In this document: positions 37,142 through 63,391 of the stretch, one piece after another
Position numbering within the stretch: the first letter of the stretch is position 1
How the letters are laid out: each line of letters begins with the position of its first letter
Assembly (NCBI GenBank): GCA_011053005.1
Contig: DRHW01000004.1
Location: 124,001 to 188,000 of the forward strand
From: Methylophaga sp.
GTDB lineage: Bacteria > Pseudomonadota > Gammaproteobacteria > Nitrosococcales > Methylophagaceae
Reading direction: 5' to 3'
Length of the DNA stretch: 64,000 nt
Made by a program: the position numbers and the translations under genes
The notes under the pieces: generated by a model
What the model was told of the DNA's origin: nothing
The model's database searches: none
The model's input: only the letters and a program-made list of their open reading frames with translations

Positions 37142-37785
37142 GTGAGCAAGCAATAAAAGTATTGTTAGTCGACGACCATACCGTCGTGCGTGCTGGATTT
37201 CGGATGTTATTAGCATCGCAATCCTTTATTGGCGATATTGTTGATGTTGATCGTGGTGAATTAGCGACCCAAGAATATAACCGATTTCAACCTGATGTCG
37301 TGGTGATGGATTTATCCATGCCTGGAATTGGCGGATTGGAAACCATACGCCGCTTATGTAAAAATAATCCTGACGCCGTTATTTTGGTCTATAGCATTCA
37401 TGATGAAGCTATATATGTAGAGCGCGCTTTACAAGCAGGGGCTAAAGGCTATGTCAGCAAAAACAGTGCGGCAGAAGTATTAGCTGAAGCCGTTGCCGTA
37501 GTCGCTTCGGGCAAACGTTATATCGAGCGGGATCTTTTACCAAAAGTAGATGATGTCCGTGAAGCGGGCCCTGAATATATTAAGGAGGCGGTGACAGCCT
37601 TATCACCACGAGAGTTTGATGTATTTTGTCTTCTCGCAAAAGGAAAAACAGCACACGAGATTTCTGCCGATATGTGTTTGAGTTATAAAACAGTGTCTAA
37701 TTACAGCACGCATATTAAGAGTAAGCTCAAGGCTAGCACTGCAGCAGATTTGGCCAATGTTGCGATGGTTTTGGGTTTAATTTAA
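37138..37785 (+). CDS. moxX: MoxX-type NarL-family response regulator
   Basis: A 215-residue regulator with a receiver domain (acidic pair Asp12/Asp13, phospho-acceptor Asp58 in VVVMDLSMPG, Lys near 107 in YVSKNSA) and a C-terminal LuxR-type HTH (about 148-210, LSPREFDVFCLLAKGKTAHE). It is translationally coupled to moxY. It probably activates mxaF or related promoters; the direct target site is not identified. Confidence 0.87.
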   Translation: MSEQAIKVLLVDDHTVVRAGFRMLLASQSFIGDIVDVDRGELATQEYNRFQPDVVVMDLSMPGIGGLETIRRLCKNNPDAVILVYSIHDEAIYVERALQAGAKGYVSKNSAAEVLAEAVAVVASGKRYIERDLLPKVDDVREAGPEYIKEAVTALSPREFDVFCLLAKGKTAHEISADMCLSYKTVSNYSTHIKSKLKASTAADLANVAMVLGLI

Positions 37786-41861: not shown

Positions 41862-41960
41862 TGCCATTGTAAGCGAAATGATTGTAAGTAATGGCAGCTG
41901 CAAAGTGCAGTTTTCCATTGCTTGCAACATTATGTAGTTCAATCCAAAGGAGAGAAGAAG

Positions 41961-42236
41961 ATGAATAAAATTAAACTATTAGCAATAAGTAGTGCAACAG
42001 CCTTAATGTTTACTTTTGGCATGTCTGCCATGGCTTATGACGGCACAAACTGTAAATCAGACGGCGTATGTTGGGAAGCTAAACCAGGATTTCCTAATGA
42101 AATTAAAGGTTCAAAATTTGATCCTAAACACAGTGCAAAAGAGTTAGAAAAACAAAATGTCGCTAACAACGCGATGGAAGAGCGTAATGCAAAACGTGTT
42201 GAAAACTTCAAAAAAACAGGTAAGTGGGTTTACTAA
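41961..42236 (+). CDS. mxaI: Methanol dehydrogenase small subunit
   Basis: A 91-residue precursor whose signal peptide (MNKIKLLAISSATALMF, cleavage after SAMA) leaves a mature beta subunit starting YDGTNCKSDGVCWEAKPGFP. This is the conserved MxaI N-terminus with two cysteines for a disulphide. The rest is Lys-rich and helical and wraps MxaF. The start at 41961 has AAAGGAG upstream. A terminator follows. Confidence 0.97.
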   Translation: MNKIKLLAISSATALMFTFGMSAMAYDGTNCKSDGVCWEAKPGFPNEIKGSKFDPKHSAKELEKQNVANNAMEERNAKRVENFKKTGKWVY

Positions 42237-47604: not shown

Positions 47605-48255
47605 TTAATGATTAGGCGGTGTGATTAAACCAATTTTTTGAGCAAGAAAAATAATATCCACCAATTTTGTGGTATCTAATTTTCGCATCATATTTGTTTT
47701 GTAATTAGAAACGGTTTTAGGTGATAGCGATAAGCCCTTCGACATTTCTTCAATGCTCATTCCCTTTGCCAACATATTAAATATTGCAAACTCTTGGTGA
47801 GATAAAGCGCGTAATTTTTGATCTGTTTTTAAGTGCTTTTCCATTGCAATCGAATAAGCAATATCAGGTGCGAGATAGTGATTTTTATCCGCTACTGATT
47901 TCACCGCATCAATAAAAACATCAGATGAACATGACTTAGTAATGTAACCGATCGCACCGAGCTCCATTGCACGCATCGCTAAGGTTGTTTCATCGTGCAT
48001 ACTGCACACTAAAACACGGGCATTTTTACTGTGAAGACAAATACGGTGAATACACTCTAAGCCACTTTTTCCCGGCATGGTGAGATCAACAATACACACA
48101 TCTGGTTGAAGTTTAACAAACGCTTTATAGCCTTCATCAGCATTATCTGCTTGTCCGATGACATCAAAACCCGCCGATTCAAGTAGCCTTTGATAACCTT
48201 CTCTTAGAATAGTGTGATCATCTATTAATAATATTGAAGTACGAGGATTGCTCAT
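47605..48255 (-). CDS. NarL-family response regulator (MxaB-like)
   Basis: A 216-residue regulator with receiver phospho-acceptor Asp57 (VCIVDLTMPG), conserved Lys near 106 (YITKSCS) and a LuxR-type HTH (about 150-210, LSHQEFAIFNMLAKGMS). It resembles moxX in layout and in the HTH, suggesting an old duplication of the system. MxaB of Methylobacterium is also a NarL-type regulator in the mxa region, so this is a candidate for that role. It is partnered with the kinase just upstream and convergent with mxaL. Confidence 0.82.
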   Translation of the reverse strand: MSNPRTSILLIDDHTILREGYQRLLESAGFDVIGQADNADEGYKAFVKLQPDVCIVDLTMPGKSGLECIHRICLHSKNARVLVCSMHDETTLAMRAMELGAIGYITKSCSSDVFIDAVKSVADKNHYLAPDIAYSIAMEKHLKTDQKLRALSHQEFAIFNMLAKGMSIEEMSKGLSLSPKTVSNYKTNMMRKLDTTKLVDIIFLAQKIGLITPPNH

Positions 48256-48279
48256 AGTGCTGCCTTTCTTAAAAAGTGG

Positions 48280-49239
48280 TTATAAAGGAATATTGATTTT
48301 TAAGCGTGAACCTTGCGGCTCAGCATTACTGATAGAAAGCTGGCCTGATAATGCGGTTATTCGCTCACGCATACCAATCAGTCCTATCCCCATTGATAAA
48401 TCATTCACAGGTTTAAAACCTACACCATCATCTTGGATGATTAATAGCACTTCGTAATGAATGCCATCTTCAGCATGGGTGTACAAATCAATATTTATAT
48501 TACTCGCATGTGCATGTTTAACGATGTTGGAAAGTGCTTCTTGCAGACAGCGGTACACCGTCAAAGCAACATCATAATTAACCAATTCATCATGAACCTT
48601 GCTTGAAAGTATCAGCTCATAACTTGGAAACGAAACGAGCCATTGTGATGCAAGTGACTCGATACTTGCAGACAGGCCAACCGACTGTAAATTGGGGGGC
48701 TTAATGCTTTGAAGCTGAGAGCGCGTCACTTCAATAAGAAAACTCGCACTGGTTTGAACTGTTTTCAGAATAGGTAAGATCTTGTCATCACCCTGTGCGT
48801 ATTTGCAGGCAACAGCAAGATTCACATCGATGGCGGCAAGATGTTGGCCAAAAACATCATGTAATTCAGTCGCTAAATCGTTTCGTTCGGCTTCCCTTAC
48901 TTGGGTGATATGTTTAATTAATTCACGGTTTTGTGCCAACAAGGTCACCACTTCAGTATTCTTGTTTTCGAGTGATGCTGATATCGCCATATTATTTTTT
49001 AAAGTGGTTTGTAGCACTCGGTAATGACGATGACTAAACCAACTTAAACAAATACTCAGTGCTAAAAAGCTAAAAATAAGCTCATCGAGCTGATAGTTTT
49101 CTTCTGGGTGAGCCCATTCCTGCCAAGCTTCAGCAAGCTCAAAATGAGCAGCAATAAAAAACACGCCGACAGTGATCACCATGATCAGCAAGATCTCTAG
49201 TTTTCTACTTGCTCTTTGAGATCGATTGTTTAACGACAT
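48280..49239 (-). CDS. NarL-class sensor histidine kinase
   Basis: A 319-residue kinase with two membrane helices (about 14-33 and 54-69) separated by a short periplasmic loop rich in acidic and tryptophan residues. It then has a coiled-coil (about 85-120), HisKA_3 with phospho-acceptor His127 (ATELHDVFGQ), and a HATPase domain (IQDDGVGFKP, GIGLIGMRER). No large sensor domain is visible, so it may sense membrane state or a small signal. It is cotranscribed with the response regulator 25 bases downstream. Confidence 0.85.
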   Translation of the reverse strand: MSLNNRSQRASRKLEILLIMVITVGVFFIAAHFELAEAWQEWAHPEENYQLDELIFSFLALSICLSWFSHRHYRVLQTTLKNNMAISASLENKNTEVVTLLAQNRELIKHITQVREAERNDLATELHDVFGQHLAAIDVNLAVACKYAQGDDKILPILKTVQTSASFLIEVTRSQLQSIKPPNLQSVGLSASIESLASQWLVSFPSYELILSSKVHDELVNYDVALTVYRCLQEALSNIVKHAHASNINIDLYTHAEDGIHYEVLLIIQDDGVGFKPVNDLSMGIGLIGMRERITALSGQLSISNAEPQGSRLKINIPL

Positions 49240-49799: not shown

Positions 49800-50324
49800 A
49801 TGAATGTAATCAAAAAACTATTAGCAGTATTGGGCCTTAGTCTAAGTTTAGTCGCCACTTCGGCGTTCGCTCATGGTCCTACACCGCAAAAAGTGGATGA
49901 AGAAATTATTATTAATGCTGATATGGCAACGGTGTGGAATAAAATTAAAGCCTTCGACAGCTTTGCTGAATGGCAGCCTGCCGTAGCTTCTATTGCGATG
50001 ACAGATCCAGATACACGCGTAGTAACACTTAAATCGGGTGGTGAATTTACCGATAGTTTAGATGAGGTTAATGAAGAAGAACACTATATTGGTTATCGTT
50101 TATTAGAAGAAAATGCAAAGATATTTCCGGTTAGTTTTTACACGATTAATATACAAGTAAGCGCTGAAGGCGACAAAAGCAAAGTCAGCTGGAGCGGTCG
50201 TTTTTATCGTGGCGACACCGGTAATTTCCCTGCTGAAAACTTAAATGATGATGCGGCTGTGAAAGCGATGACAGAGTATGCCAACTCTGGTTTAGCAGGT
50301 CTAAAAGCACTGGTTGAAAAGTAA
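49800..50324 (+). CDS. mxaD: MxaD, periplasmic SRPBCC-fold protein
   Basis: A 174-residue precursor with a signal peptide ending SAFA and a mature polyketide cyclase/START-like fold (EEIIINADMATVWNKIKAFD, FAEWQPAVASI). In Methylobacterium MxaD is periplasmic and improves electron transfer between methanol dehydrogenase and cytochrome cL. Here it is separated from mxaL by the two-component genes and belongs to its own three-gene unit. Its 3' end abuts the beta-propeller gene. Confidence 0.9.
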   Translation: MNVIKKLLAVLGLSLSLVATSAFAHGPTPQKVDEEIIINADMATVWNKIKAFDSFAEWQPAVASIAMTDPDTRVVTLKSGGEFTDSLDEVNEEEHYIGYRLLEENAKIFPVSFYTINIQVSAEGDKSKVSWSGRFYRGDTGNFPAENLNDDAAVKAMTEYANSGLAGLKALVEK

Positions 50325-50325
50325 G

Positions 50326-51267
50326 TTGAAGCGCCACGGACTGTATTTAGTTTATATGTTTCTGTTGTTATCGCCGAAGTTGGTTTATTCAACAGAGTTT
50401 TATATTAGCAGCCAAACGTCTAATGCAATATCACTGTTTAATTCAAACACCTTAGACATTGAACAATCCTTTGCAGTGCCAAAAGGCCCGGTTAATTTAT
50501 TGGTGAATGAAGACAAAGATGTTTTTTATATTTCACATCCAGAAAAAGGCGTCGTATCTGTTTTTGATCAAAAGACACGCCGTTTGTTACAAGAAATTGA
50601 AACAGGCGGACAACCTTTTGGTATGGCGTTAGATACTAAAAAACAAAAATTGTTTGTTACCGATTGGTCTCGTGATTCTGTGCTGGTTATCAACACCGTG
50701 TCATTTCAAGTCGTCGATATTTTAGCGGTAGGTAAAAGCCCAGCAGGCATAGCCATTGATACCGTTGGTAGAAAGGTGTTTGTTGCTAATCGTGAGAGTC
50801 ATACCTTAACGGTTTTAGATGCCGATAAACCGAGATTGATTGCACATATAGAGACAGGAAATAATCCTTATTCCGTGGTCTTTAATTCGCAAAAAAATCA
50901 ACTCTATGTTGGCTGCGTCAAAGAAAATTCAGTGACGGTCATTGATACAGAAAGTTATAAGGTGATAGCCAGTTTGCCTGTTAAAGCGCCTTATGGTTTT
51001 GCAATATCCAATGACGGTGAGCAGTTTTTTGTGACATCTCAAGCTGAAAATAAGTTAGTGGTATTTGATGCTAATACACTTGAGGCTACATCTAGAATCG
51101 CCACAGGTAAAATGCCAGAAAGCGTGGCATTGTCAGTAGATAATCAACGCGCTTTTGTGGTGAATTGGTTTAGCAATTCTATTTCGGTTATCGATCTTCA
51201 AACAAAGCAGCAAAGCAGTTTAGTCAAACTGAATAATGAATCACGGATGATTGTGAAGGCACAATAA
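50326..51267 (+). CDS. Periplasmic YVTN-type beta-propeller protein
   Basis: About 313 residues with an N-terminal signal sequence (hydrophobic LYLVYMFLLLSP, cleavage near VYS) and six to seven repeats of about 42 residues of the YVTN/PQQ-associated propeller type (FVTDWSRDSVLVINT, VFVANRESHTLTVLD, FVTSQAENKLVVFDA). The start is a TTG at 50326 (or 50314 inside mxaD), both with weak ribosome sites. A similar propeller family accompanies PQQ-dependent pathways, so a role beside methanol dehydrogenase is plausible but unproven. Confidence 0.83.
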   Translation: MKRHGLYLVYMFLLLSPKLVYSTEFYISSQTSNAISLFNSNTLDIEQSFAVPKGPVNLLVNEDKDVFYISHPEKGVVSVFDQKTRRLLQEIETGGQPFGMALDTKKQKLFVTDWSRDSVLVINTVSFQVVDILAVGKSPAGIAIDTVGRKVFVANRESHTLTVLDADKPRLIAHIETGNNPYSVVFNSQKNQLYVGCVKENSVTVIDTESYKVIASLPVKAPYGFAISNDGEQFFVTSQAENKLVVFDANTLEATSRIATGKMPESVALSVDNQRAFVVNWFSNSISVIDLQTKQQSSLVKLNNESRMIVKAQ

Positions 51268-51861: not shown

Positions 51862-52404
51862 TTGAGTAACGCAGCGGTATATCAAGATTTAAATGTCGGC
51901 ATAGTGAGTCCTCGTTCAGCCAGAAATGGTTTGGTCACTGAGCTTTATCAAGCACACAATGCCTGGTTACTTGGATGGTTACGTAAAAAAATAGGTTGCA
52001 GTTTAGATGCGGCCGATTTGATGCACGATACGTTTTCACGACTTTTACAAAAAGACGACCTTCCCGTCATTAATGAGCCTCGCGCCTATCTCACTACGAT
52101 TGCTCATGGCCTTATGGTCAACCATGTTCGTAGACGCGATATCGAACAGGCTTATCACAATGCAATAGCACATTTACCAGAAGCTGAGATGCTGTCAGCC
52201 GAAACAATCAACATCATGGTTGAAACACTCACTAATATTGATGCAATGCTTAGTGGCTTATCAAGCAAAGTACGCGATGCTTTTTTATGGTGTCAATTAG
52301 AAGGCTTAACCCATGCTGAAATTGCTGAAAGGTTAGATGTCTCAGTGAGTTCTGTGCGTCAATATATTGCTAAAGCCTTACTGCATTGCATCGAAGTTGT
52401 TTAA
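51862..52404 (+). CDS. FecI-type ECF sigma factor
   Basis: A 180-residue extracytoplasmic-function sigma factor. Region 2 lies at about 28-95 (WLRKKIGCSLDAADLMHDTF, LTTIAHGLMVNHVRRRD). Region 4 lies at about 120-175 (LSGLSSKVRDAFLWCQLEGL, HAEIAERLDVSVSSVRQYIA). The start is a TTG at 51862 supported by GGGGAAG five bases upstream. It precedes fecR by 32 bases, the standard cell-surface-signalling pair. It should direct transcription of the receptor and possibly the genes beyond. Confidence 0.92.
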   Translation: MSNAAVYQDLNVGIVSPRSARNGLVTELYQAHNAWLLGWLRKKIGCSLDAADLMHDTFSRLLQKDDLPVINEPRAYLTTIAHGLMVNHVRRRDIEQAYHNAIAHLPEAEMLSAETINIMVETLTNIDAMLSGLSSKVRDAFLWCQLEGLTHAEIAERLDVSVSSVRQYIAKALLHCIEVV

Positions 52405-52436: not shown

Positions 52437-53399
52437 ATGATAAAACAAAGTTCCAATGCACTTCATGATGCTGCCGAGTGGTTTGTTCAGCTGACATCAG
52501 GTGATGCGACAGCACAAGATCGTGAAGCATGGCAAGCATGGGTTAATGCCGATGATGAACATAAACAAGCTTGGCAAAGAATCGAAGGCGTCACCAGCCA
52601 ATTCAAAGGATTAGATCCTAAAACAAGCATCGCTGTGCTTAATAGCTCGAATGCCAATTCATCAATATCGAATGAACGCCGACAAGCGATTAAAACCTTG
52701 GGCTTACTCTTAGCAGTGGGATCTGCAGGTTGGCTAACCTATAACACTTCGCCGTGGGATGCATTGATGGCAGATTATGCTACTGCCACGGGCGAGATTA
52801 AACATATCCAGCTTTCAGATGGAACGCGTCTAGTACTCAATACCAATAGCCAAATTTCAATTGATTTTGATGAGCAATACAGAAATGTCAGATTATTGAA
52901 AGGCGAGGTTTATATTGAAACCGCACACGAAGAGAACCGTGTTTATCGTCCTTTTAACGTGATAACCGATCATGGCATAGCAACCGCCTTGGGAACCCGA
53001 TTTAGCACACGTCTAGACGATGAACTCAGCTGCGTTAATGTTTATCAAGATACCGTAAAAGTACAAGCAATGACGGGTGAAACTACCTTTATTAATGCGG
53101 GTGAATCTGTCAAGTTCACGAGTAATACTATTCATCCGATCATGGCAGTTGACGATGCAGCCAATGCATGGACAAAAGGTTTTATCATTGCCGATAAAAT
53201 GCCATTGGCTCAGTTTGTTGAAGAACTCGCTCGATACAAGTCTGGCATAGTGCGTTGCGATCCTGCCATTGCCAGTTTAGAAATTTCAGGCTCCTATCCT
53301 TTGACAGATGTGGATGCGACTTTGCATAGCATTAGTACAATTTTCCCAATAAAAATTGATCATTTTACCCGTTATTGGATCATGCTCAAACCCGCATAG
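52437..53399 (+). CDS. FecR-type anti-sigma regulator
   Basis: A 320-residue inner-membrane regulator. The cytoplasmic N-terminus (DAAEWFVQLTSGDATAQDRE, DUF4880 type) holds the sigma factor. One membrane helix lies at about 84-103, and the periplasmic FecR domain (about 112-215: IKHIQLSDGTRLVLNTNSQI, GEVYIET) receives the signal from the TonB receptor's N-terminal domain. The C-terminal STN-like part (about 260-320) contacts the transducer. It matches the downstream STN receptor. Confidence 0.93.
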   Translation: MIKQSSNALHDAAEWFVQLTSGDATAQDREAWQAWVNADDEHKQAWQRIEGVTSQFKGLDPKTSIAVLNSSNANSSISNERRQAIKTLGLLLAVGSAGWLTYNTSPWDALMADYATATGEIKHIQLSDGTRLVLNTNSQISIDFDEQYRNVRLLKGEVYIETAHEENRVYRPFNVITDHGIATALGTRFSTRLDDELSCVNVYQDTVKVQAMTGETTFINAGESVKFTSNTIHPIMAVDDAANAWTKGFIIADKMPLAQFVEELARYKSGIVRCDPAIASLEISGSYPLTDVDATLHSISTIFPIKIDHFTRYWIMLKPA

Positions 53400-53540: not shown

Positions 53541-56500
53541 GTGAATAAAGAACGGCACCTAAATAAAGTATTATCTCGTTGGTTGTATTCCGTGGCGATG
53601 ATTATGGTTTCAACTATGTCATTGAGTAATATAGCGATTGCAGATGATGACACCACTGATAACGCATCAAATAAAAAATACGCTATTCCAGCAGGCCCAT
53701 TAGGTAAAGCTATCTCAAGCTATGCTGCAGATAATGGTATGCGTTTAACGTTTGAGCCTTCATTAGCAGAAGGCAAAACAACACAAGGCCTGCAAGGTGA
53801 ATATACCGTCAACGAAGGTTTTTCTAAGCTATTAGATAACAGCGGTTTAGAAGTGATTGATGATCAAGATGGAGGTTACTTCCTAGTGCCATCGATGGAA
53901 GAATTTCCAGCACTGGGTGAAGATGTCATCAAACTAGACCAAGTCAATGTCCGTGCCCAACGCTTTTATGAACTCGGTCCATTACCCGGTTTAGGTCTGA
54001 CTAAAGAAGAAATCCCCGGCAACGTACAAAGCATCAGCGCCCAAGAAATTAAAGATTCTCATTCTTTAAGCATGACCGATTTATTCAATCAAAAACTACA
54101 AGGTGTCACCGTCAACGACTACCAAGGCAATCCCTTTCAAATGGATGTGCAATATCGTGGCTTTAGTGCAGGCCCACAAATTGGCACACCACAAGGTTTA
54201 AGCGTGTTTTTTGATGGTATTCGTGTTAACGAACCGTTTGGTGATGTGGTGAACTGGGACATGATCCCCATGAATGCCATTTCTAGTGTGGATGTCTTTC
54301 CAGGTTCAAATCCTATCTTTGGTTTAAATACCTTAGGTGGTGCCTTCACCATGAAAACCAAAGATGGTTTTAACAACGATAAAGCCGATGTACAAGTCCT
54401 AGCTGGTTCATTTGGTCGTAAACAATTACTGATGGAAAACGGCTGGAACAATGGCAAAATCGCCTTTTTTGGTGCAGCAAGTTTATTTGATGAAGAAGGC
54501 TGGCGTGATGACTCACCGAGTAAAGTGAATCAATTCTTTGGAAAAAGCAGCTACCGAGGTGACAAACTTGATGTTAATTTAAGCACCTTATTAGTTAAAA
54601 CCGATTTAACAGGTAATGGCCTCATTCCTAGCGAACAATACGATAGAGATTCATCAAGCGTCTTTACATCACCCGATACCACCACCAACAAACTACAACA
54701 ATTTCAACTTTCTAGTGCGTTTCAAGTCAATGACAAATTTAGTGTCACAGGTCAAGTTTATCGACGTAATAGTGACCGACGTCAAATTGGTTCTGATGTT
54801 GTGACGGATTATGATGATGAGCTACTTGCCAAACGTTTACCGGCTGATGGTGAACAATATACTTGTTTATTTAATAGTACTGGTATAGCGAATGACTATG
54901 GCGTACCTAACTACTTTGTTATTCCAGTTGATAACTATGACCCTAGTTCTACAAGTATTTTTAACTCACAGTTTCTTCAGGATTTAGTCACTAGTTCCCC
55001 AACACAATTGGCGACAGATTATGGTTCAAATATCAATACTGAATTACCTGGTGATTTTCTAAAAGCATTTCAATATAGATATGTAGAAAACCGCAATTTT
55101 AAAGAAGAAAATACATACAATAGGAACAACACACCTATAAGTAAAGATGGTCCTCAAAATCCAGATTTTCCCGGCGAACTTGAATACTCAGCTGATTTTT
55201 CATACTCATTAGTAGGGGGAGGAACAAGTAATGGCTTTGGTGCAGTTTTTGAGAGTGATACTTATTTTTTTACTCGATCTACTGATGGAAGTGGTAACCC
55301 GGTAATCACCAAAAATTACGTTATTCTTTTACCTCCCTCGAATGAAGATACATGCCAGCAAACAAAAGCAACTGTTAATAACTATGAAATATACGATGAT
55401 GTTGGCAATCCGGTTGCGATAGATGGGGCCTATGGATATGGTGAAGATGGCCCAGGTTCGGGCTCAGGATATGTAAAAGGCACACCCACAGCCATTATTA
55501 CTGATAACCGAATCACACAAAGTACTGATGGTGCATCTGTTCAGTTCAACTGGAATTTAGATGAACACAAATTTATGGTGGGTATGTCAATTGATGCGGC
55601 TAGTGCTGATTATACCAATAGTCAACGACTTGGCTTTTTTGATGCTAATCGAAAGGCCTATTTAGACCCAGACCAAGCTCACCCTCAATTTTTGGCAGCC
55701 TTTGATCCCTTAGAAAACAGTAATTTTAGTGGCACCAATACCACGAAGAGTATTTATTTCAGTGAAACATGGAACCCCATTGATGCATGGAATTTTAACT
55801 TCTCGGGACGTTATAACGACACCACCACAAAAAGCAAAATTGCAACGCGTTATGGACCCAAAGGTGCCAACTATTCGGTGACTGATTTAATTGGCGAGCC
55901 AGATCAATACAATATCTGTCCTAATGGTGACTGTACAGGTGTGGCCACCAATTTTAAACGCTATCGTTTAGACGATACGCTTGAAGAGGCTGAATCAGAA
56001 TCGTTTAATTATTATTCATTTAATCCGTCGTTAGGTGCGACTTGGCAGGCCAAAGATAATTTGAATGTTTATGCCAATTGGTCACAAGGTACGCGGGTTC
56101 CCAGCGTCATTGAGCTAGGTTGTGCCTTAGACCATACACCAACAGGTAGATATTACGAAGATGGTCAGGGTGGATTCTATGAAATTCCCAAAAGTGTGTT
56201 AGAAAAAAGAGGCTGTTATTTACCTAATACGCTATCAGGTGATCCGTATTTACCTCAAATAAAAGCGACGTCATATGATATCGGTTTACGAGGCAGCCTG
56301 AGTGATAATTTGCAATGGAACTTAGGTGCTTACCAAACAGATCTTAAAGACGACATTTATTTTGTTGCGGTCGGTGGTGGATCAGGATTCTTCGACAGTA
56401 TTGGTAACACACGTCGCCGAGGTATCGAAGCAGGTTTATCGGGCCAACATGAAAAATGGGGCTTTAGTGTCAACTACGCACTGACCGAAGCAACATTTCA

Positions 56501-57062
56501 AGATAAATTCTTGATGATTAGTGCTGATAATGGAACGGCAATCTATGTGCCCAGCATTGGAAATTCAATTATTGAGGTTGATAAAGGCGACACGATGCCA
56601 GGTGTTTCGCGTCATAACCTGAATGCAACAGTTAGCTATTTAGTCACACCAAAATGGCAAGTAGGCGTGACGGCTATTGCTCACTCATCAAGTTATGTTC
56701 GAGGTAACGAAAATAATGAACATAAAGTCGGTCAAGTTCAAACACGAGAATTAGGTGGTGTCGAAGTTTCTCGTCAGCCTATGACTAACCCTGGGACGAT
56801 ACCTGCTTACGCCACTTTTAATTTTCAAACGAGTTATAAAGCGACCAAAACGCTCACCGTTTCACTGTTAGTAAACAATGTATTCGATAAAGAATATTTC
56901 AGTGCAGGTGGTCTGGGACGTGATCCTTTCTCACCCAGCATTAACGGTGCAATTGGTCCAGATGGCTATAACCACAACTCTAATGATTGGCAAAGTACCA
57001 ACTTTATTGCACCGGGTGCACCGCGTGGTGCATGGGTAGGGCTAAATTGGGTTTTTGATTAA
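53541..57062 (+). CDS. TonB-dependent outer-membrane transducer with STN domain
   Basis: A 1173-residue receptor. A signal peptide is followed by a signalling STN domain (about 46-115: YAIPAGPLGKAISSYAADNG), then a TonB box/plug (about 140-270: EEIPGNVQSISAQEIKDS) and a large beta barrel ending in aromatic VFD. The start is GTG at 53541 after a GAGAGA tract. It is far longer than ordinary FecA-type receptors (about 770-800). The extra length is partly a hydrophilic loop (about 440-660) with Cys442 and Cys605. The ligand is not identifiable; the STN domain says it signals to FecR. Confidence 0.92.
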   Translation: MNKERHLNKVLSRWLYSVAMIMVSTMSLSNIAIADDDTTDNASNKKYAIPAGPLGKAISSYAADNGMRLTFEPSLAEGKTTQGLQGEYTVNEGFSKLLDNSGLEVIDDQDGGYFLVPSMEEFPALGEDVIKLDQVNVRAQRFYELGPLPGLGLTKEEIPGNVQSISAQEIKDSHSLSMTDLFNQKLQGVTVNDYQGNPFQMDVQYRGFSAGPQIGTPQGLSVFFDGIRVNEPFGDVVNWDMIPMNAISSVDVFPGSNPIFGLNTLGGAFTMKTKDGFNNDKADVQVLAGSFGRKQLLMENGWNNGKIAFFGAASLFDEEGWRDDSPSKVNQFFGKSSYRGDKLDVNLSTLLVKTDLTGNGLIPSEQYDRDSSSVFTSPDTTTNKLQQFQLSSAFQVNDKFSVTGQVYRRNSDRRQIGSDVVTDYDDELLAKRLPADGEQYTCLFNSTGIANDYGVPNYFVIPVDNYDPSSTSIFNSQFLQDLVTSSPTQLATDYGSNINTELPGDFLKAFQYRYVENRNFKEENTYNRNNTPISKDGPQNPDFPGELEYSADFSYSLVGGGTSNGFGAVFESDTYFFTRSTDGSGNPVITKNYVILLPPSNEDTCQQTKATVNNYEIYDDVGNPVAIDGAYGYGEDGPGSGSGYVKGTPTAIITDNRITQSTDGASVQFNWNLDEHKFMVGMSIDAASADYTNSQRLGFFDANRKAYLDPDQAHPQFLAAFDPLENSNFSGTNTTKSIYFSETWNPIDAWNFNFSGRYNDTTTKSKIATRYGPKGANYSVTDLIGEPDQYNICPNGDCTGVATNFKRYRLDDTLEEAESESFNYYSFNPSLGATWQAKDNLNVYANWSQGTRVPSVIELGCALDHTPTGRYYEDGQGGFYEIPKSVLEKRGCYLPNTLSGDPYLPQIKATSYDIGLRGSLSDNLQWNLGAYQTDLKDDIYFVAVGGGSGFFDSIGNTRRRGIEAGLSGQHEKWGFSVNYALTEATFQDKFLMISADNGTAIYVPSIGNSIIEVDKGDTMPGVSRHNLNATVSYLVTPKWQVGVTAIAHSSSYVRGNENNEHKVGQVQTRELGGVEVSRQPMTNPGTIPAYATFNFQTSYKATKTLTVSLLVNNVFDKEYFSAGGLGRDPFSPSINGAIGPDGYNHNSNDWQSTNFIAPGAPRGAWVGLNWVFD

Positions 57063-57122
57063 GAACTTTTGTAATAAGCAGTTATAAATGCCTATTTTAT
57101 TGTAATTCACATGGAGAAGCAG

Positions 57123-58118
57123 ATGAGATACAACACATTAAAACTAACAATGCTCTTAGCCTTAGGTTTGTCTGGAACACAAGCACATGCTTTAGGCTTG
57201 GTTGCATTACCTGATACTGGGTTTTCAAGTTCAGCTTATACCAGTTGTTATAACAATGGTCGGGTTGTACCACCGACAAATGCTGATGATGTTAAAGGGA
57301 ACTTTGGTTCATATCCGATTGCTGGTGCAAACCAACCCTCAACTTCCAAAAATAACACTTGTTTTGTAGCAAAACCATTTTTTGAAAATTTCTCACCCGT
57401 ATCGGGATATACATTAGTTGGAAATAGAAGTACGGTTATTCCAGCTACAACTGGCGGTGGCGGGAATATCGGAACTCTCGTTGATTATGTATGGCGAAAT
57501 TCTGCACAAACGATGTGTATTTTTGGTACACGAGTAACGATGAATAATGCAGATCATACGAATGGTGGCTCGATATATAAATATTTCGAGGTGAATGATA
57601 TAGCACGTGGAGGTTTTTCCAACTCTGGAACAGTTAATGTGGGATATACCATTTTCAGAACAACAGGTAATACGTCACCACTTTATCGAATCGGTCGTAC
57701 ATTTACTTCTGTTCAACATCGTGCGTATAAATATGACACTCTTTTGAATAAGCAAGTAAATGGTCTTAACTATCTAGATTTACCCACGAAAAATAATGTG
57801 TCATCAGCTATTACAGGTGAAAATTTACCATTAGCAGATCATACTGTTGCTAGTACAACATTGGCTAGTCAAGATGCTGTCGCGAATAGTAATTGGGTGA
57901 ACTTCACAACAAAAGTAACATTTGCAGATTCCGATACAGGTTCTACATTTGCAATATCCCCTTTTACTTATATACAAGCACCTTGTGACTCAAGTTCACC
58001 TAATACATGGATAAAAACCGGAGCAATTCGTCTGCGTCAAACAATTCAGGAGGTCGGGTCATCGTTAAAAGAAATTACTGTCGATGGTTATGCTCCACCG
58101 GATGCGACACTGCCTTGA
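57123..58118 (+). CDS. Secreted protein of unknown function, tandem copy 1
   Basis: A 331-residue precursor with a signal peptide (MRYNTLKLTMLLALGLSG, cleavage after AHA at 23). The start at 57123 has GGAG six bases upstream. The mature protein has four cysteines (42, 80, 132 and one near the C-terminus), a glycine-rich turn (TTGGGGNIG, about 109-117), and is rich in Thr, Ser, Asn and aromatic residues like an extracellular beta protein. It is nearly identical to copy 2 over its first 137 residues (seven differences), then diverges. I do not recognise the family. It follows the TonB transducer by 60 bases. Confidence 0.87.
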   Translation: MRYNTLKLTMLLALGLSGTQAHALGLVALPDTGFSSSAYTSCYNNGRVVPPTNADDVKGNFGSYPIAGANQPSTSKNNTCFVAKPFFENFSPVSGYTLVGNRSTVIPATTGGGGNIGTLVDYVWRNSAQTMCIFGTRVTMNNADHTNGGSIYKYFEVNDIARGGFSNSGTVNVGYTIFRTTGNTSPLYRIGRTFTSVQHRAYKYDTLLNKQVNGLNYLDLPTKNNVSSAITGENLPLADHTVASTTLASQDAVANSNWVNFTTKVTFADSDTGSTFAISPFTYIQAPCDSSSPNTWIKTGAIRLRQTIQEVGSSLKEITVDGYAPPDATLP

Positions 58119-58288
58119 TAAAAATGAAGGTCAAAAAGTTTTTTCAGGATTATAGGTAGACATTTGTGACTACCAAACAGGTTTCATTTTCAAGCATTGA
58201 AATCAACAAATTACAGACGCTTGGAATGAAATGGGTGATACAGGCAGCCACAAATGCCTGTTTTATTGTAACTCGTATGGAGAAGCAA

Positions 58289-59278
58289 ATGAAACATAAC
58301 ACATTAAAACTAACAATGCTCTTAGCCTTAGGTTTGTCTGGAACACAAGCACATGCTTTAGGCTTGGTTGCATTACCTGATACTGGTTTTGCAAGTTCAG
58401 CTTATACCAGTTGTTATAACGATGGTCGGGTTGTACCACCGGCAAATGCTGATGATGTTAAAGGGAACTTTGGTTCATATCCGATTGCTGGTGCAAACCA
58501 ACCCTCGACTTCCAAAAACAACACTTGTTTCATAGCAAAACCATTTTTTGAAAATTTCTCGCCAGTATCAGGATATACATTAGTTGGGAATAGAAGTACG
58601 GTTATTCCAGCTACAACTGGCGGTGGCGGAAATATCGGAACTCTCGTTGATTATGTATGGCGAAATTCTGCACAAACGATGTGTATTTTTGGTACACGAG
58701 CAACGATGATTAGTGCGGATCATGATAGCAGTAAATCTGGCACGCAATATTTTGAAATTAATGATATTGCTCGTGGTGGCTTTGCTAACTCTGGAACTGT
58801 CAATGTGGGATATACCATTTTCAGCACAGCTGGTAATACGTCGCCCGTCTATCGGGTGGGTCGTACCTTCACCTCTGTCCAACATCGTTCGAAAAGTTAT
58901 GACACATTTTTGAATAAGCAAGTAAATGGGACCAACTATCTTGATTTGCCTACCAAGAATAGCGTCACGGCTGCTATCACAGGTGAAAATTCACCTATTG
59001 ATGCCACTGATCCAGCTAGTACAACCTTAGCAACGCAAGATGCAGTGGTGAATAGCAATTGGGTCGATTTTACTGCTGATACTGTTTTTTACGATGACGA
59101 TGGATCGACAAATGCGCTATCTGGGTTTACTTATATTCAAGCTGCTTGTGACGGTACTGATACTGATGATTGGGTCCTATCAGATGCTATTCGTCTTCGT
59201 CAAACAGCTCAGGAAGAAACTACCTTTAAGGAAATTGCAATTCCTGGATTTGCACCGCCGGGTGCAAGCATCCCTTAA
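58289..59278 (+). CDS. Secreted protein of unknown function, tandem copy 2
   Basis: A 329-residue paralogue of the preceding gene with the same signal peptide, cysteines and glycine turn. The start at 58289 has GGAG as in copy 1; the longer in-frame ATG at 58166 gives an N-terminus that would hide the signal peptide. The duplicated unit includes the leader sequence (57085-57122 matches 58251-58288). Divergence is concentrated after residue 137. Folded, disulphide-bearing exoproteins of this kind are typical type II secretion cargo, and gspGFE lie downstream, but the link is inferred. Confidence 0.87.
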   Translation: MKHNTLKLTMLLALGLSGTQAHALGLVALPDTGFASSAYTSCYNDGRVVPPANADDVKGNFGSYPIAGANQPSTSKNNTCFIAKPFFENFSPVSGYTLVGNRSTVIPATTGGGGNIGTLVDYVWRNSAQTMCIFGTRATMISADHDSSKSGTQYFEINDIARGGFANSGTVNVGYTIFSTAGNTSPVYRVGRTFTSVQHRSKSYDTFLNKQVNGTNYLDLPTKNSVTAAITGENSPIDATDPASTTLATQDAVVNSNWVDFTADTVFYDDDGSTNALSGFTYIQAACDGTDTDDWVLSDAIRLRQTAQEETTFKEIAIPGFAPPGASIP

Positions 59279-59362: not shown

Positions 59363-61642
59363 ATGGCGACAAAAATTTTTAATTCAACAGAAGTAACTTA
59401 TACGGGCACAAATAACGCTGATTTTGTGGTCGGAAATGGTCTTGATAATTATATTGAAGGTGCTGGTGGTAATGATCTGATTTATGCAGGGGATGGTAAT
59501 GATGTTGTTCTCGGCGGTACAGGCAACGACATCATTTTAGGCGGTGCCGGCGATGATGTTTTAGTGGGTGAATCTGGTGATGATCTAATTTTAGGGGGCT
59601 CAGGTGATGACGCCATTGCCGGTGGTGATGGGGATGATATTATTCATGGTGGATCCGGAAATGATACTATTTTTGGTGACAATGGCGACGACATCATTAG
59701 TGGTGGGAAGGGGAGTGACTATATAGAAGGTGGAGACAGTACCGCTGGAAATGAAGCTATTAATGGTAATGTTTATTTAGCAACATCGGATGATTTATTA
59801 CTGGGTGGTGGGGGAAATGATACCTTTGTATTAGCTGATGCTGAGGATTATCTTACTGAAGATGAAGATGAAGATGAAGATGAAGATGAAGAAGTCGAAG
59901 AAGTCGAAGACGACGATGACGACGATGACGATGACGATGACGATCTAGCACCATCAGTAAGTATGTTAGGTGCGACATCTTCTCTAGATAACAATGGAAA
60001 TGTGGCTAGATATACCGATGTTCAAGAGGCTGAAGAAGACAATGATGATGCAGGATTCGTTGTTTTTGATAATGTGTTAGGTGAATTTGTTGCATTAGAC
60101 AGTATCGAAATTGCAGAACAAACAGAGACAGATGTTCGTTTAAATATCGTTACACGTCCCGGTTCTTCAGAAATCAACACAGCTGCAAGTACTATTGCTG
60201 GTTATAACGCTGTTGATACACTTGAATTTACTGAAAGTGGTGATTTTTCTGAGTCAATAGGTTTCAGTGGCATTGAACGTATTGAGTTGAATGATGGTGT
60301 CAATATCACGTTGTCTTCTGAACAATTTGAAGCAAATGGCGAGTCTTTAAGCTTAGGTGAACTAAATCCGGGTACTCATATTTATGGTACTGCGGGTGGT
60401 GAGTCTGAATCAGTCACTATTGCTTTTGAATATGAAGAAGCTGAGTTCGAACCAGAAGATGACATCGTTGGTGCCGTTGAAGTTGAATATGACTATGCAG
60501 GATTTTCTGCTGATGAATATTCAATTGCTAACTTATTCCATGATGTAAATATTATCTACGATGCCAGCGAAGGAGAAGAAGGCAGCTTTACACGTGTAGA
60601 TGGTGGTAATGAAACTGCTGGTGCAACTGAAACTGTTTACGGTAGTGAAGGTGTTGACTACGGCACGATGCATTCAGGTGACGATACTTACTACGGTAAC
60701 GATGGCAACGATGTTTTAGTTGGCCAAAGTGGTGCTGATAGTTTGTATGGTGAAGATGGCGATGACATCTTTGAAATCGGTGGTTTTGGTACAGGTGTTT
60801 CAGGTACAACTTCTGCTGCTGATGATGGTAATCAAGAATGGATTGCGACCGGTGCGAAACATGATCTAATCGTGGGTGGTGATGGTGTTGATACCTTGCG
60901 TGTTACGACAGGTGTTGGTGCTAATACTCAAGCAAGCGGTACGGTGGTACTGAATGATGCTAACTTCCAAAGCATGGAAGTTGTTCAAGTCGGTGGAACC
61001 GTTGATCAGTTGAATGTAGAAAATGATGCGTTGCAAATGTTGAACGATCATTACTATTTCCAAGCGAATGGTAATGTGAGTGATCTTAGCAACAGCTTAG
61101 GCAATAACGGCGGCACGATTAATAATGTGGTTATTGATGCATCTGGCGTAACAGCGAATGGTCTGCGTTTTGAAGGTAATGCTGATGACAATACGTTCAT
61201 CGGAACAACGCAAGACGATGTCTTTGTTGGTAACAGCGGTGATGATGTTATGACCGGTGGTGCTGGTGCTGATACGTTTGTATTTGGTCAAGTGCAAGAG
61301 CAAGTTGTCACAGGTGATGATGATGAAGTTCAAAGCTATGTCGATACAGCATTTGATTTGACGGGTGTTGATACGATTACTGACTTCCTAAGTGGTACGG
61401 ATACCATTGCTTTAAATGTTGATATGTTCAGTTCATTGACTGTTGGTGGCTTCTCTGCTGCTAACTTGGTGAGTGGTGCTGGTGCTGTGGCAGGTGATGC
61501 AGATGACTATTTGTTGTTTGATTCACTGACCAATACATTAAGCTATGATGCTGACGGAAATGGTGCTGGTGATGCCGTGCAAATTGCGGTCTTGACGGGT
61601 GTTACTTCATTTAGCGCTTCTGATGTTGAAGTGTTTGCATAA
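59363..61642 (+). CDS. RTX calcium-binding protein with poly-acidic tract
   Basis: A 759-residue protein without a Sec signal (start MATKIFNSTEVTYTG), preceded by a strong GGAGAG ribosome site. RTX nonapeptide blocks lie at about 28-125 (GGAGDDVLVGESGDD, GGSGNDTIFGDNGDD), near 435-465, and near 605-640 (GNSGDDVMTGGAGADTF). A run of Glu/Asp lies at about 166-194. The C-terminus (ITDFLSGTDTIALN, LSYDADGNGAGDAVQ) resembles type I secretion tails. It could be an S-layer-like or cell-surface calcium protein; that is inference. No type I exporter is in the window. Confidence 0.85.
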   Translation: MATKIFNSTEVTYTGTNNADFVVGNGLDNYIEGAGGNDLIYAGDGNDVVLGGTGNDIILGGAGDDVLVGESGDDLILGGSGDDAIAGGDGDDIIHGGSGNDTIFGDNGDDIISGGKGSDYIEGGDSTAGNEAINGNVYLATSDDLLLGGGGNDTFVLADAEDYLTEDEDEDEDEDEEVEEVEDDDDDDDDDDDDLAPSVSMLGATSSLDNNGNVARYTDVQEAEEDNDDAGFVVFDNVLGEFVALDSIEIAEQTETDVRLNIVTRPGSSEINTAASTIAGYNAVDTLEFTESGDFSESIGFSGIERIELNDGVNITLSSEQFEANGESLSLGELNPGTHIYGTAGGESESVTIAFEYEEAEFEPEDDIVGAVEVEYDYAGFSADEYSIANLFHDVNIIYDASEGEEGSFTRVDGGNETAGATETVYGSEGVDYGTMHSGDDTYYGNDGNDVLVGQSGADSLYGEDGDDIFEIGGFGTGVSGTTSAADDGNQEWIATGAKHDLIVGGDGVDTLRVTTGVGANTQASGTVVLNDANFQSMEVVQVGGTVDQLNVENDALQMLNDHYYFQANGNVSDLSNSLGNNGGTINNVVIDASGVTANGLRFEGNADDNTFIGTTQDDVFVGNSGDDVMTGGAGADTFVFGQVQEQVVTGDDDEVQSYVDTAFDLTGVDTITDFLSGTDTIALNVDMFSSLTVGGFSAANLVSGAGAVAGDADDYLLFDSLTNTLSYDADGNGAGDAVQIAVLTGVTSFSASDVEVFA

Positions 61643-61651
61643 GTAAAGATT

Positions 61652-61687
61652 AAGAGGATGTGCCGGTTGGTGCATCCTCTTTTTTTA
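61652..61687 (+). terminator. Strong terminator after the RTX gene
   Basis: A 13-bp stem (61652-61664 with 61669-61681, two wobbles) with a GGTT loop followed by six T. It ends the RTX transcript 30 bases before gspG, which must be read through or use its own start. Confidence 0.92.
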
Positions 61688-61717
61688 TTCTTCATGTTCA
61701 ACATTAAGGTAGTCATC

Positions 61718-62188
61718 ATGTCAGTGTTCAAAGCGTTTATTAATCCAGTTCAATTAACAAATACAGCTAGATCAGCACAGCGAGGTTTTACCTTGCTCGA
61801 GTTGCTGGTGGTTATGGTCATTATCGGTCTATTGGCTGGTTATGTTGGCCCCAAATATTTTGCTCAAATCGGTAAGTCAGAAGTCAAAACGGCTCGCGCT
61901 CAAATCAACGCATTAGGTAAAGCATTAGATACCTATCGTTTGGATGTTGGGCATTACCCAAGCACAGAAAATGGTTTAGCGGCATTAACGACGCAACCTA
62001 ATAATGAACCCAAATGGCAAGGTCCATATCTACAAAAAGATGCACCAAAAGATCCTTGGGACAATCCTTATCATTATCAAATGCCCGGTACACATGGCCA
62101 AAGTGGCGATTATGATTTGTGGTCATTAGGCAATGATAATGCGAGTGGTGGTAAAGACATTGCTGCCGATATTGTGAGCTGGCAATAG
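61718..62188 (+). CDS. gspG: Type II secretion major pseudopilin GspG
   Basis: A 156-residue pseudopilin of the type II secretion system. The prepilin peptidase site is RG|FTLLELLVVMVIIGLL, with the mature Phe +1 and the conserved Glu +5. It is followed by the GspG C-terminal domain with calcium-site features (LDVGHYPSTENGL, KDPWDNPYHY, GDYDLWSLG). The start at 61718 gives a 23-residue leader, long but within range; the in-frame ATG at 61658 lies inside the terminator. It is followed by gspF. Confidence 0.93.
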   Translation: MSVFKAFINPVQLTNTARSAQRGFTLLELLVVMVIIGLLAGYVGPKYFAQIGKSEVKTARAQINALGKALDTYRLDVGHYPSTENGLAALTTQPNNEPKWQGPYLQKDAPKDPWDNPYHYQMPGTHGQSGDYDLWSLGNDNASGGKDIAADIVSWQ

Positions 62189-62200
62189 GTACTTTAAAGA

Positions 62201-63391
62201 GTGAAATTTAGCTTGAAAATAGTACAAGGCGACACTGTTAATGTGATGGAAGTCGAGGCTGGCAATTCTTTGCAAGCGCGTTCTATTGCAGAAGAACAAG
62301 GTCATCATGTGTTATCAATCAGCCAGCAAAAGGCAGTTAATCTTAAGATTGCTAGTCTCAAAACAACTAAATTTAATGTCATGTTATTCAGCCAAGAGTT
62401 GTTGGCGTTGATTGAATCTGGCTTAAGCTTAGTTGAGGCAATAGAAGCATTAGCTGAGAAGGAAACGCATGCTGAATCGAAAGCTGTTTTAAACAAAATC
62501 AAAGCGTCGCTTTTTGATGGGCAAACACTTTCAACCTCATTAGAAAATGTGCCAGATGTCTTTACAGCACTTTATATTGCTTTGATTCGAGCGAGTGAAC
62601 GCACGGGTGATATGGAAACGGCTTTACGTCGACATGTCGCTTATCAATCGCAAGTTGATGCGATGAAAAAGAAGATTATCTCTGCCGCTATTTATCCGGT
62701 GTTATTACTGGTGGTGGGCGGCTTAGTGGTGCTGTTTTTATTAGGTTATGTTGTACCTAAATTTAGTGTGATTTATGAAAGCACTAATGCTGAGTTGCCG
62801 TTGATGTCTCAGCTTTTATTGAGTTGGGGACGTTTATTACATACTCATGGTCGCGAAGCATTTGCTGTATTTATTGTGGGTATTTGTTTGATGAGTTATG
62901 TATTAAGTCGACCTTTTGTTCGCAGCATGATCATGGCAAAAGTGTGGCAAATTCCTAAAGTGGGTGAGAGTCTGCGTATTTATCAACTAGCACGGTTTTA
63001 TCGGACTTTAAGTATGTTATTGCAAGGCGGTATTCCACTGACCAGTGCAATGCGGATGGTGTCGTCATTATTACAGCCTTTATTACGTAGCAAATTAGCC
63101 AACGTAGTGAATGACGTGCAAGAAGGCAAACCGTTATCGACTGCGATGGAAATACATGGGCTGACAACTTCTATTTCTGTTCGTATGTTACGAGTGGGAG
63201 AACGTACCGGACAAATGGGCGAAATGATGGAACGCATCGGTATTTTTTATGATGATGAAATTGCCCGTGTTGTTGAGTGGTTTACCAAATTACTAGAACC
63301 GATATTGATGATTGCAATCGGCTTAGTGGTGGGCTTGGTTGTTGTATTAATGTACATGCCAATTTTTGAGTTGGCGGGGAGTATTCAATGA
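62201..63391 (+). CDS. gspF: Type II secretion inner-membrane platform protein GspF
   Basis: A 396-residue platform protein with two repeated cytoplasmic T2SF domains (about 65-185 and 268-388: LIRASERTGDMETALRRH, MLRVGERTGQMGEMMERI) and three membrane segments (about 165-190, 220-240, 365-388). It starts at GTG 62201, 12 bases after gspG. The N-terminal segment of about 60 residues is shorter than some GspF proteins. It overlaps gspE by four bases. Confidence 0.93.
   Translation: MKFSLKIVQGDTVNVMEVEAGNSLQARSIAEEQGHHVLSISQQKAVNLKIASLKTTKFNVMLFSQELLALIESGLSLVEAIEALAEKETHAESKAVLNKIKASLFDGQTLSTSLENVPDVFTALYIALIRASERTGDMETALRRHVAYQSQVDAMKKKIISAAIYPVLLLVVGGLVVLFLLGYVVPKFSVIYESTNAELPLMSQLLLSWGRLLHTHGREAFAVFIVGICLMSYVLSRPFVRSMIMAKVWQIPKVGESLRIYQLARFYRTLSMLLQGGIPLTSAMRMVSSLLQPLLRSKLANVVNDVQEGKPLSTAMEIHGLTTSISVRMLRVGERTGQMGEMMERIGIFYDDEIARVVEWFTKLLEPILMIAIGLVVGLVVVLMYMPIFELAGSIQ

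What the first reader, a model, noticed from the sequence alone, without database searches (positions are those of the whole stretch)
57085..59278. Tandem duplicated secreted proteins with a frozen N-terminal half
The two proteins differ at only seven of their first 137 residues, including an unchanged signal peptide, glycine turn and three cysteines, while the C-terminal halves differ widely. The leader and ribosome site are also duplicated. This mosaic pattern suggests recent duplication followed by C-terminal diversification, or gene conversion of the 5' part. A constant delivery or anchoring half and a variable binding half would explain it.
Basis: seen in the sequence. Interest (0 to 1): 0.6.

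Follow-up and report, generated by a model that had tools for sequence, protein, structure and literature searches.

The report
Converted gene pair in methylotroph uptake cassette
Two neighbouring genes for secreted proteins look half-identical because an old duplicate pair recently had its front halves overwritten by gene conversion; they belong to an undescribed cassette, shared among methanol-eating bacteria, that pairs an outer-membrane uptake receptor with proteins sent outside the cell, possibly to collect rare-earth metals.

Summary
The mosaic is real. Copies A (57111-58118) and B (58277-59278) differ at about 11% of synonymous sites up to residue ~146 and about 60% after it (0/5000 permutations). 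The cause is a ~430-bp gene-conversion tract, not a frozen half. In the C-terminal tree B groups with single-copy orthologues to the exclusion of A, so the duplication is old. Between those orthologues the N-terminal half is the more variable one, and family-wide both halves are equally conserved.

The proteins form an unnamed family with no Pfam, NCBIfam or PDB sequence match, strong only in methylotrophs. It sits directly behind or near one TonB-dependent receptor subfamily, usually in a cassette FecI-FecR-receptor-family(1-3)-RTX with type I and/or type II secretion genes. Here it lies near the mxa operon. Relatives of the lanthanide binder LanPepSY lie near other loci. In ten of ten closely related tandem pairs the receptor-proximal copy evolves faster and has a broken acidic DxDG loop that the partner keeps.

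Best guess: secreted partners of a receptor that takes up metal, perhaps lanthanides. The metal is inferred, not shown.

The parts
51862..52404 (+). FecI-type ECF sigma factor
   Evidence: Pfam/NCBIfam sigma-70 r2/r4 and FecI-like models
52437..53399 (+). FecR-type anti-sigma regulator
   Evidence: PF04773 FecR, E 2.5e-20
53541..57062 (+). TonB-dependent receptor with N-terminal STN-like signalling domain
   Evidence: PF00593, PF07715, weak PF07660; same receptor subfamily beside the family in nearly every locus examined
57078..57110 (+). leader and ribosome-binding region of copy A, duplicated before copy B at 58244-58276
   Evidence: local DNA alignment, 41/49 identical
57111..58118 (+). copy A: secreted protein, fast-evolving, receptor-proximal copy
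   Evidence: signal peptide read directly; longer branch and broken DxDG loop
58277..59278 (+). copy B: secreted protein, slow copy with intact DxDG loop
   Evidence: C part groups with single-copy orthologues L001 and L115
57120..57557 (+). gene-conversion tract in copy A (partner tract 58286-58723 in B); boundaries approximate
   Evidence: 93-100% identity inside, 57% in the next window; pS 0.11 against 0.6
57927..57941 (+). altered acidic loop of copy A (D-S-D-T-G, one residue inserted)
   Evidence: family alignment
59093..59104 (+). intact acidic DxDG loop of copy B (D-D-D-G, residues 273-276)
   Evidence: present in at least one copy of 45 of 46 loci
59363..61642 (+). RTX nonapeptide-repeat protein of the cassette
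   Evidence: PF00353, 7 stretches, E 6.3e-36; follows the family genes in most Methylophilaceae and Methylophagaceae loci
61658..62188 (+). GspG, first gene of a type II secretion cluster
   Evidence: TIGR01710 above cut-off
62201..63391 (+). GspF; the cluster continues past the window with GspE, a secretin and pseudopilins, then an ABC/HlyD/TolC type I exporter and a second FecI-FecR-receptor set
   Evidence: locus L014
38361..47603 (+). neighbouring mxa operon (Ca-dependent methanol dehydrogenase, mxaF-J-G-I and downstream genes); context, not a cassette part
   Evidence: PF02315 MDH beta subunit at 41922-42236 and motif [10 protein letters not shown] in the 38361 ORF

Best explanation
Shown: A and B are an old tandem pair of secreted proteins whose 5' ~430 bp were recently homogenised by gene conversion; each copy kept its own C-terminal part. 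Shown: they belong to a methylotroph-centred family that is linked to one subfamily of TonB-dependent receptors and, in most loci of two of the three groups, to FecI-FecR, an RTX protein and type I and/or type II secretion genes. Inferred: the family proteins leave the cytoplasm by Sec and the cell by the linked type II system, the RTX protein leaves by the type I system, and outside the cell they help deliver a scarce ligand to the receptor, which signals its arrival through FecR and FecI. Inferred, with less certainty: the ligand is a metal used in methanol oxidation, most likely a lanthanide, and the DxDG loop of the slow copy contributes to binding, while the fast copy has lost that site and taken another role. 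Confidence: conversion about 0.95; secreted partner of the receptor about 0.65; lanthanide as ligand about 0.4. The figure below is for the whole statement.
For: Conversion. Cassette: about 30 loci in Methylophilaceae and Methylophagaceae and the contig continuation with secretin, GspE, ABC/HlyD/TolC, second FecIR and receptor. Receptor linkage reaches weak relatives in Burkholderiales outside the methylotroph families (L138, L139). Restriction: 39/187 Methylophilaceae, 23/301 of the L005 order, 8/63 of the own order, but no strong hit in 369 sampled Gammaproteobacteria beyond the own genome and only weak ones (E no better than 1e-11) among sampled Burkholderiales outside Methylophilaceae. Lanthanide hints: two-PepSY LanPepSY-like protein next to the receptor in L006 and L095; within 12 kb of the family in 7 of 69 genomes against about 0.6 expected, in two lineages; 63 of 69 family-bearing genomes hold a LanPepSY-like gene; in the own genome a paralogue of this receptor (C2:213905-216121) lies ~200 bp from such a gene (C2:213277-213705); mxa operon and MoxY/MxaY-type kinase (PF16448) nearby; XoxF 'DYD' enzymes in family-bearing genomes including the own one. 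Loop and rate asymmetry.
Against: The nearest methanol dehydrogenase operon here is calcium-type, not XoxF. FecI-FecR-STN receptor sets are classically iron systems. No fold match and only low-confidence models (pLDDT 50 and 59), so binding by the DxDG loop is untested. No sequence of the lanthanide receptor LanA was available to compare. Secretion is inferred from gene order only.
Confidence: 0.45

Rival explanations
1. The cassette takes up iron or haem: FecI-FecR and an STN receptor sense a ferric or haem ligand delivered by secreted hemophore-like partners exported by type I and type II systems.
For: FecI/FecR/STN receptor architecture is that of ferric-citrate type signalling; best receptor models are siderophore/haem families.
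Against: All receptor model scores are far below curated cut-offs; strong hits are confined to methylotroph groups; neighbours include LanPepSY-like and mxa/MoxY genes.
Confidence: 0.2
2. The proteins are surface-layer or matrix components: the RTX protein is an S-layer-like protein exported by type I secretion and the family proteins decorate or anchor it; the receptor linkage reflects docking of an uptake system on that layer.
For: Methanotroph S-layer proteins resemble RsaA, lie beside type I exporters and are proposed as docks for metal-uptake proteins (PMC11784148); RTX and T1SS genes are in the cassette; the Methylococcales version has a pentapeptide-repeat protein in place of the RTX protein.
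Against: In Methylococcales no RTX/T1SS is needed for the family-receptor linkage; FecI-FecR regulation is unusual for a structural layer.
Confidence: 0.15
3. The receptor imports another methylotrophy factor, such as PQQ or a copper complex, with the secreted proteins as its carriers.
For: PQQ is the cofactor of both methanol dehydrogenases (general knowledge); weak receptor similarity to PqqU (59.7 bits); CorA-type secreted copper proteins exist in methanotrophs (PMC11784148).
Against: The PqqU score is far below its cut-off of 1200 bits; no copper or PQQ gene was seen at the loci by the models run.
Confidence: 0.15
4. The similarity of the 5' halves is constraint on a delivery half rather than conversion.
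For: Amino acids are nearly unchanged in residues 1-141.
Against: Synonymous sites are equally unchanged and the break is abrupt; the same half is variable between orthologues; N and C trees conflict.
Confidence: 0.02

Closest known systems
Protein partners of TonB-dependent receptors (hemophore HasA with HasR; surface partners such as TbpB), from general knowledge
   Same: A protein outside the cell works with a TonB-dependent receptor; HasA is a type I substrate and HasR works with a sigma/anti-sigma pair.
   Different: No sequence match to any PDB or Pfam entry; the family has a Sec signal peptide and is linked to type II secretion; the linked RTX protein is the likely type I substrate; found in methylotrophs.
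Lanthanide uptake receptors LanA and LutH and the binder LanPepSY (PMC12482762)
   Same: TonB-dependent receptor in methylotrophs; LanPepSY-like genes lie near many of these loci and next to a receptor paralogue in the own genome.
   Different: No secreted protein partner or dedicated secretion system was described for LanA/LutH in the passages read; the LanA sequence could not be compared.
RsaA-type S-layer proteins with type I secretion (PMC11784148)
   Same: RTX repeat protein beside a type I exporter in methane or methanol users.
   Different: Here it is tied to a FecI-FecR-receptor set and a second secreted family.
Concerted evolution of tandem paralogues by gene conversion
   Same: 5' tract homogenised between neighbours, rest diverged.
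   Different: Nothing unusual; direction of transfer could not be fixed.

Membership tests
Gene-conversion mosaic of tandem paralogues | abrupt change in synonymous divergence along the pair | tested here: met
   pS 0.11 to 0.61, break after residue 146, 0/5000 permutations
Gene-conversion mosaic of tandem paralogues | different phylogeny inside and outside the tract | tested here: met
   C part: B with L001, L115 (89/95) without A; N part: A and B together with one long-branched row
Constant-N / variable-C binding family | N half conserved and C half hypervariable among relatives | tested here: not met
   orthologues L001-L115 show the reverse; family-wide conservation equal
Any Pfam or NCBIfam family | profile match | tested here: not met
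   no family at E up to 1 for either copy; no PDB sequence match for the alignment
Type II secretion substrate | Sec signal peptide without lipobox, linked T2SS genes | tested here: met
   signal peptide read from sequence; T2SS cluster follows
Type II secretion substrate | export depends on the secretin/GspE | not testable with these tools
   needs deletion and fractionation
Lanthanide acquisition system | receptor is of the LanA or LutH family | not tested
   reference sequences (e.g. UniProt A0A4P9UKZ7, cited in PMC11996626) not held
Lanthanide acquisition system | linkage to known lanthanome genes | tested here: met
   LanPepSY-like gene within 12 kb in 7/69 genomes, 0.6 expected; next to a receptor paralogue in the own genome. 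The LanPepSY label rests on two PepSY domains and size, not on the reference sequence
Lanthanide acquisition system | binding of lanthanides or lanthanide-dependent expression | not testable with these tools
   needs bench work
XoxF (lanthanide methanol dehydrogenase) locus | DYD motif in the neighbouring dehydrogenase | tested here: not met
   neighbour is MxaF (DYA) in the window and in L006, L096, L120; XoxF genes lie elsewhere in the genome
Beta-sandwich adhesin-like fold | confident structural match | tested here: inconclusive
   pLDDT 59 model, best Z 7.0, best Foldseek E 9e-4 with TM 0.24

The most novel reading that the evidence does not exclude
A protein-based lanthanide-scavenging system of methylotrophs: secreted beta-rich proteins with an acidic DxDG loop and an RTX beta-roll protein, exported by linked type II and type I systems, pass lanthanides to a FecIR-signalling TonB-dependent receptor; the tandem copies are a binding and a non-binding partner kept similar at their 5' ends by gene conversion.
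Probability: 0.3. Interest if true: 0.8.

Novelty: new variant of a known kind. Interest (0 to 1): 0.5.

Why it matters
How methylotrophs obtain poorly soluble lanthanides is an open question; only a small-molecule metallophore and a few receptors and periplasmic binders are described in the papers read. A conserved cassette that ties a TonB-dependent receptor to proteins exported by linked type I and/or type II secretion systems, next to methanol-oxidation and LanPepSY-like genes, gives a concrete, testable candidate for a protein-based route. The tandem pair with one intact and one broken acidic loop supplies a natural comparison for the binding test.

Tried and rejected
First reading of the 38361 ORF as XoxF was wrong: MxaI (PF02315) and the DYA motif show the calcium-type mxa operon; earlier notebook entries that say XoxF are corrected there. 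Direction of conversion could not be fixed: within the tract A, B, L001 and L115 are about equally apart. Structure: two AlphaFold2 jobs gave pLDDT 50 and 59; Foldseek and VIA-align matches are to varied beta-sandwiches with Z at most 7 and are not interpretable. No PDB match by sequence. No plasmid records with the family. Two key papers (Groom 2019, Hemmann 2023) are not held. No held paper combines lanthanum, type II secretion and methanol dehydrogenase. The loop test was made on pairs chosen because the copies are sisters or near-sisters in the tree; loci with copies from different clades can hold two loop-bearing copies (L106, L110, L129).

Full report
Observation. Copies A (57111-58118) and B (58277-59278) are real neighbouring ORFs with a Sec-type signal peptide and no lipobox. 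Codon alignment gives pS 0.11 and pN 0.03 for codons 1-147 and pS 0.61 and pN 0.22 for the rest. The best single break in synonymous differences lies after residue 146 with max chi-square 62.5; none of 5000 permutations reached it (maximum 21.9). DNA identity is 93-100% from about 57132 to 57557 and drops to 57% in the next 60 columns; the alignment begins at 57078/58244, so part of the leader is inside or next to the tract. The tract is not identical (about 16 nucleotide differences in codons 1-140), which argues against a simple assembly duplicate.

What made the mosaic. In the C part A differs from B at 34% of residues and from the single-copy orthologues L001 and L115 at 33-34%, while B differs from them at 16-17%. 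A tree of the C part puts B with L001 and L115 (89/95) and leaves A outside; the N part puts A with B. An old duplication followed by recent conversion of the 5' part explains both. L117 (first 50 codons pS 0.03 against 0.48-0.89) and one L003 pair (0.32, 0.61, 0.25 in the first three blocks against 0.57-0.72) show further 5' patches; most other tandem pairs do not. The idea of a constant delivery half fails: between L001 and L115 residues 30-140 have pN 0.24 against 0.10 for the C part, and over 68 family members mean conservation is 0.57 and 0.54 for the two halves. The A/B C parts show dN/dS of about 0.2, so there is no sign of diversifying selection.

What the proteins are. Neither copy matches Pfam, NCBIfam or PDB sequences. 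Whole-genome searches found strong relatives only in the own order (8/63), Methylophilaceae (39/187) and the order of L005, Methylococcales (23/301); a sample of 369 Gammaproteobacteria gave none beyond the own genome apart from two genomes with weak matches, and 399 Burkholderiales gave only weak matches outside Methylophilaceae. Weak relatives checked there (27-33% identity) also sit directly behind a receptor of the same subfamily and in tandem (L138, L139). Four cysteines and several W, R, D and G positions are nearly invariant. The gene tree interleaves Methylophagaceae with Methylophilaceae sequences, which suggests transfer between beta- and gammaproteobacterial methylotrophs.

The cassette. 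In Methylophilaceae and Methylophagaceae the usual order is FecI-FecR-receptor-family(1-3)-RTX, then type I exporter genes and/or type II secretion genes, with some family copies between the two. In the window's contig the type II cluster (GspG, F, E, L-like, M-like, secretin, pseudopilins) is followed by ABC, HlyD and TolC genes and a second FecI-FecR-receptor set. In Methylococcales the family and receptor often flank a pentapeptide-repeat protein instead of the RTX protein. Export routes are inferred from this order.

Tandem copies differ in a regular way. In ten of ten sister or near-sister pairs the receptor-proximal copy has the longer branch (0.21-0.57 against 0.05-0.15) and lacks the D-x-D-G loop, which its partner keeps. 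At least one copy with the loop occurs in 45 of 46 loci; chance occurrence of the motif in shuffled C parts is about 5%. Loci whose copies come from different clades can have two loop-bearing copies (L106, L110, L129). A metal-binding role of the loop is an inference from its acidic make-up.

Which ligand. The neighbouring dehydrogenase operon is the calcium-type mxa operon, with a MoxY/MxaY-type kinase; PMC8788690 describes MxaY and MxaB as assumed components of lanthanide-dependent regulation. Genomes with the family whose dehydrogenases were checked have XoxF-type enzymes in most cases, the own genome included. A two-PepSY LanPepSY-like protein lies within 12 kb of the family in 7 of 69 genomes (0.6 expected), and in the own genome next to a paralogue of the receptor. 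An RTX block is reported to bind rare earths (PMC12756916, abstract). These are circumstantial; iron, copper or PQQ remain possible.

Structure. Models reached pLDDT 50 and 59, beta-rich, with confident strands from both halves; searches gave no interpretable match.

Verdict. The cassette it led to was not found described in the papers that could be searched, which cover open-licence papers only.

Noticed in passing
window 35825-37785 and 47605-49239: Two histidine kinase / response regulator pairs flank the mxa operon; the first kinase has the LapD/MoxY periplasmic domain.
   Followed up: partly
window 49800-51267: SRPBCC-like protein (AHGPTPQK start) and a YVTN beta-propeller between mxa and the cassette; relatives of both recur near some family loci.
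   Followed up: partly
G000:C2:213277-216121: LanPepSY-like gene about 200 bp from a receptor paralogue (38-44% identical to the window receptor) in the own genome.
   Followed up: partly
L014:15559-18692: Second FecI-FecR-receptor set (receptor about 70% identical) at the end of the window's contig.
   Followed up: partly
window 59868-59942: Long run of Asp/Glu codons inside the RTX protein, not seen in this form in the relatives read.
   Followed up: no
L001 and L115, first 29 codons of the family gene: Signal-peptide codons nearly identical between two genomes (pS 0.06) although the following codons are saturated (pS 0.75).
   Followed up: no
L111:11540 and L128:3085: An autotransporter-like protein of about 1100-1200 aa sits between the receptor and the family genes.
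   Followed up: no
L006:8714, L120:10812: Pentapeptide-repeat protein between receptor and family gene in Methylococcales, in the place of the RTX protein.
   Followed up: partly
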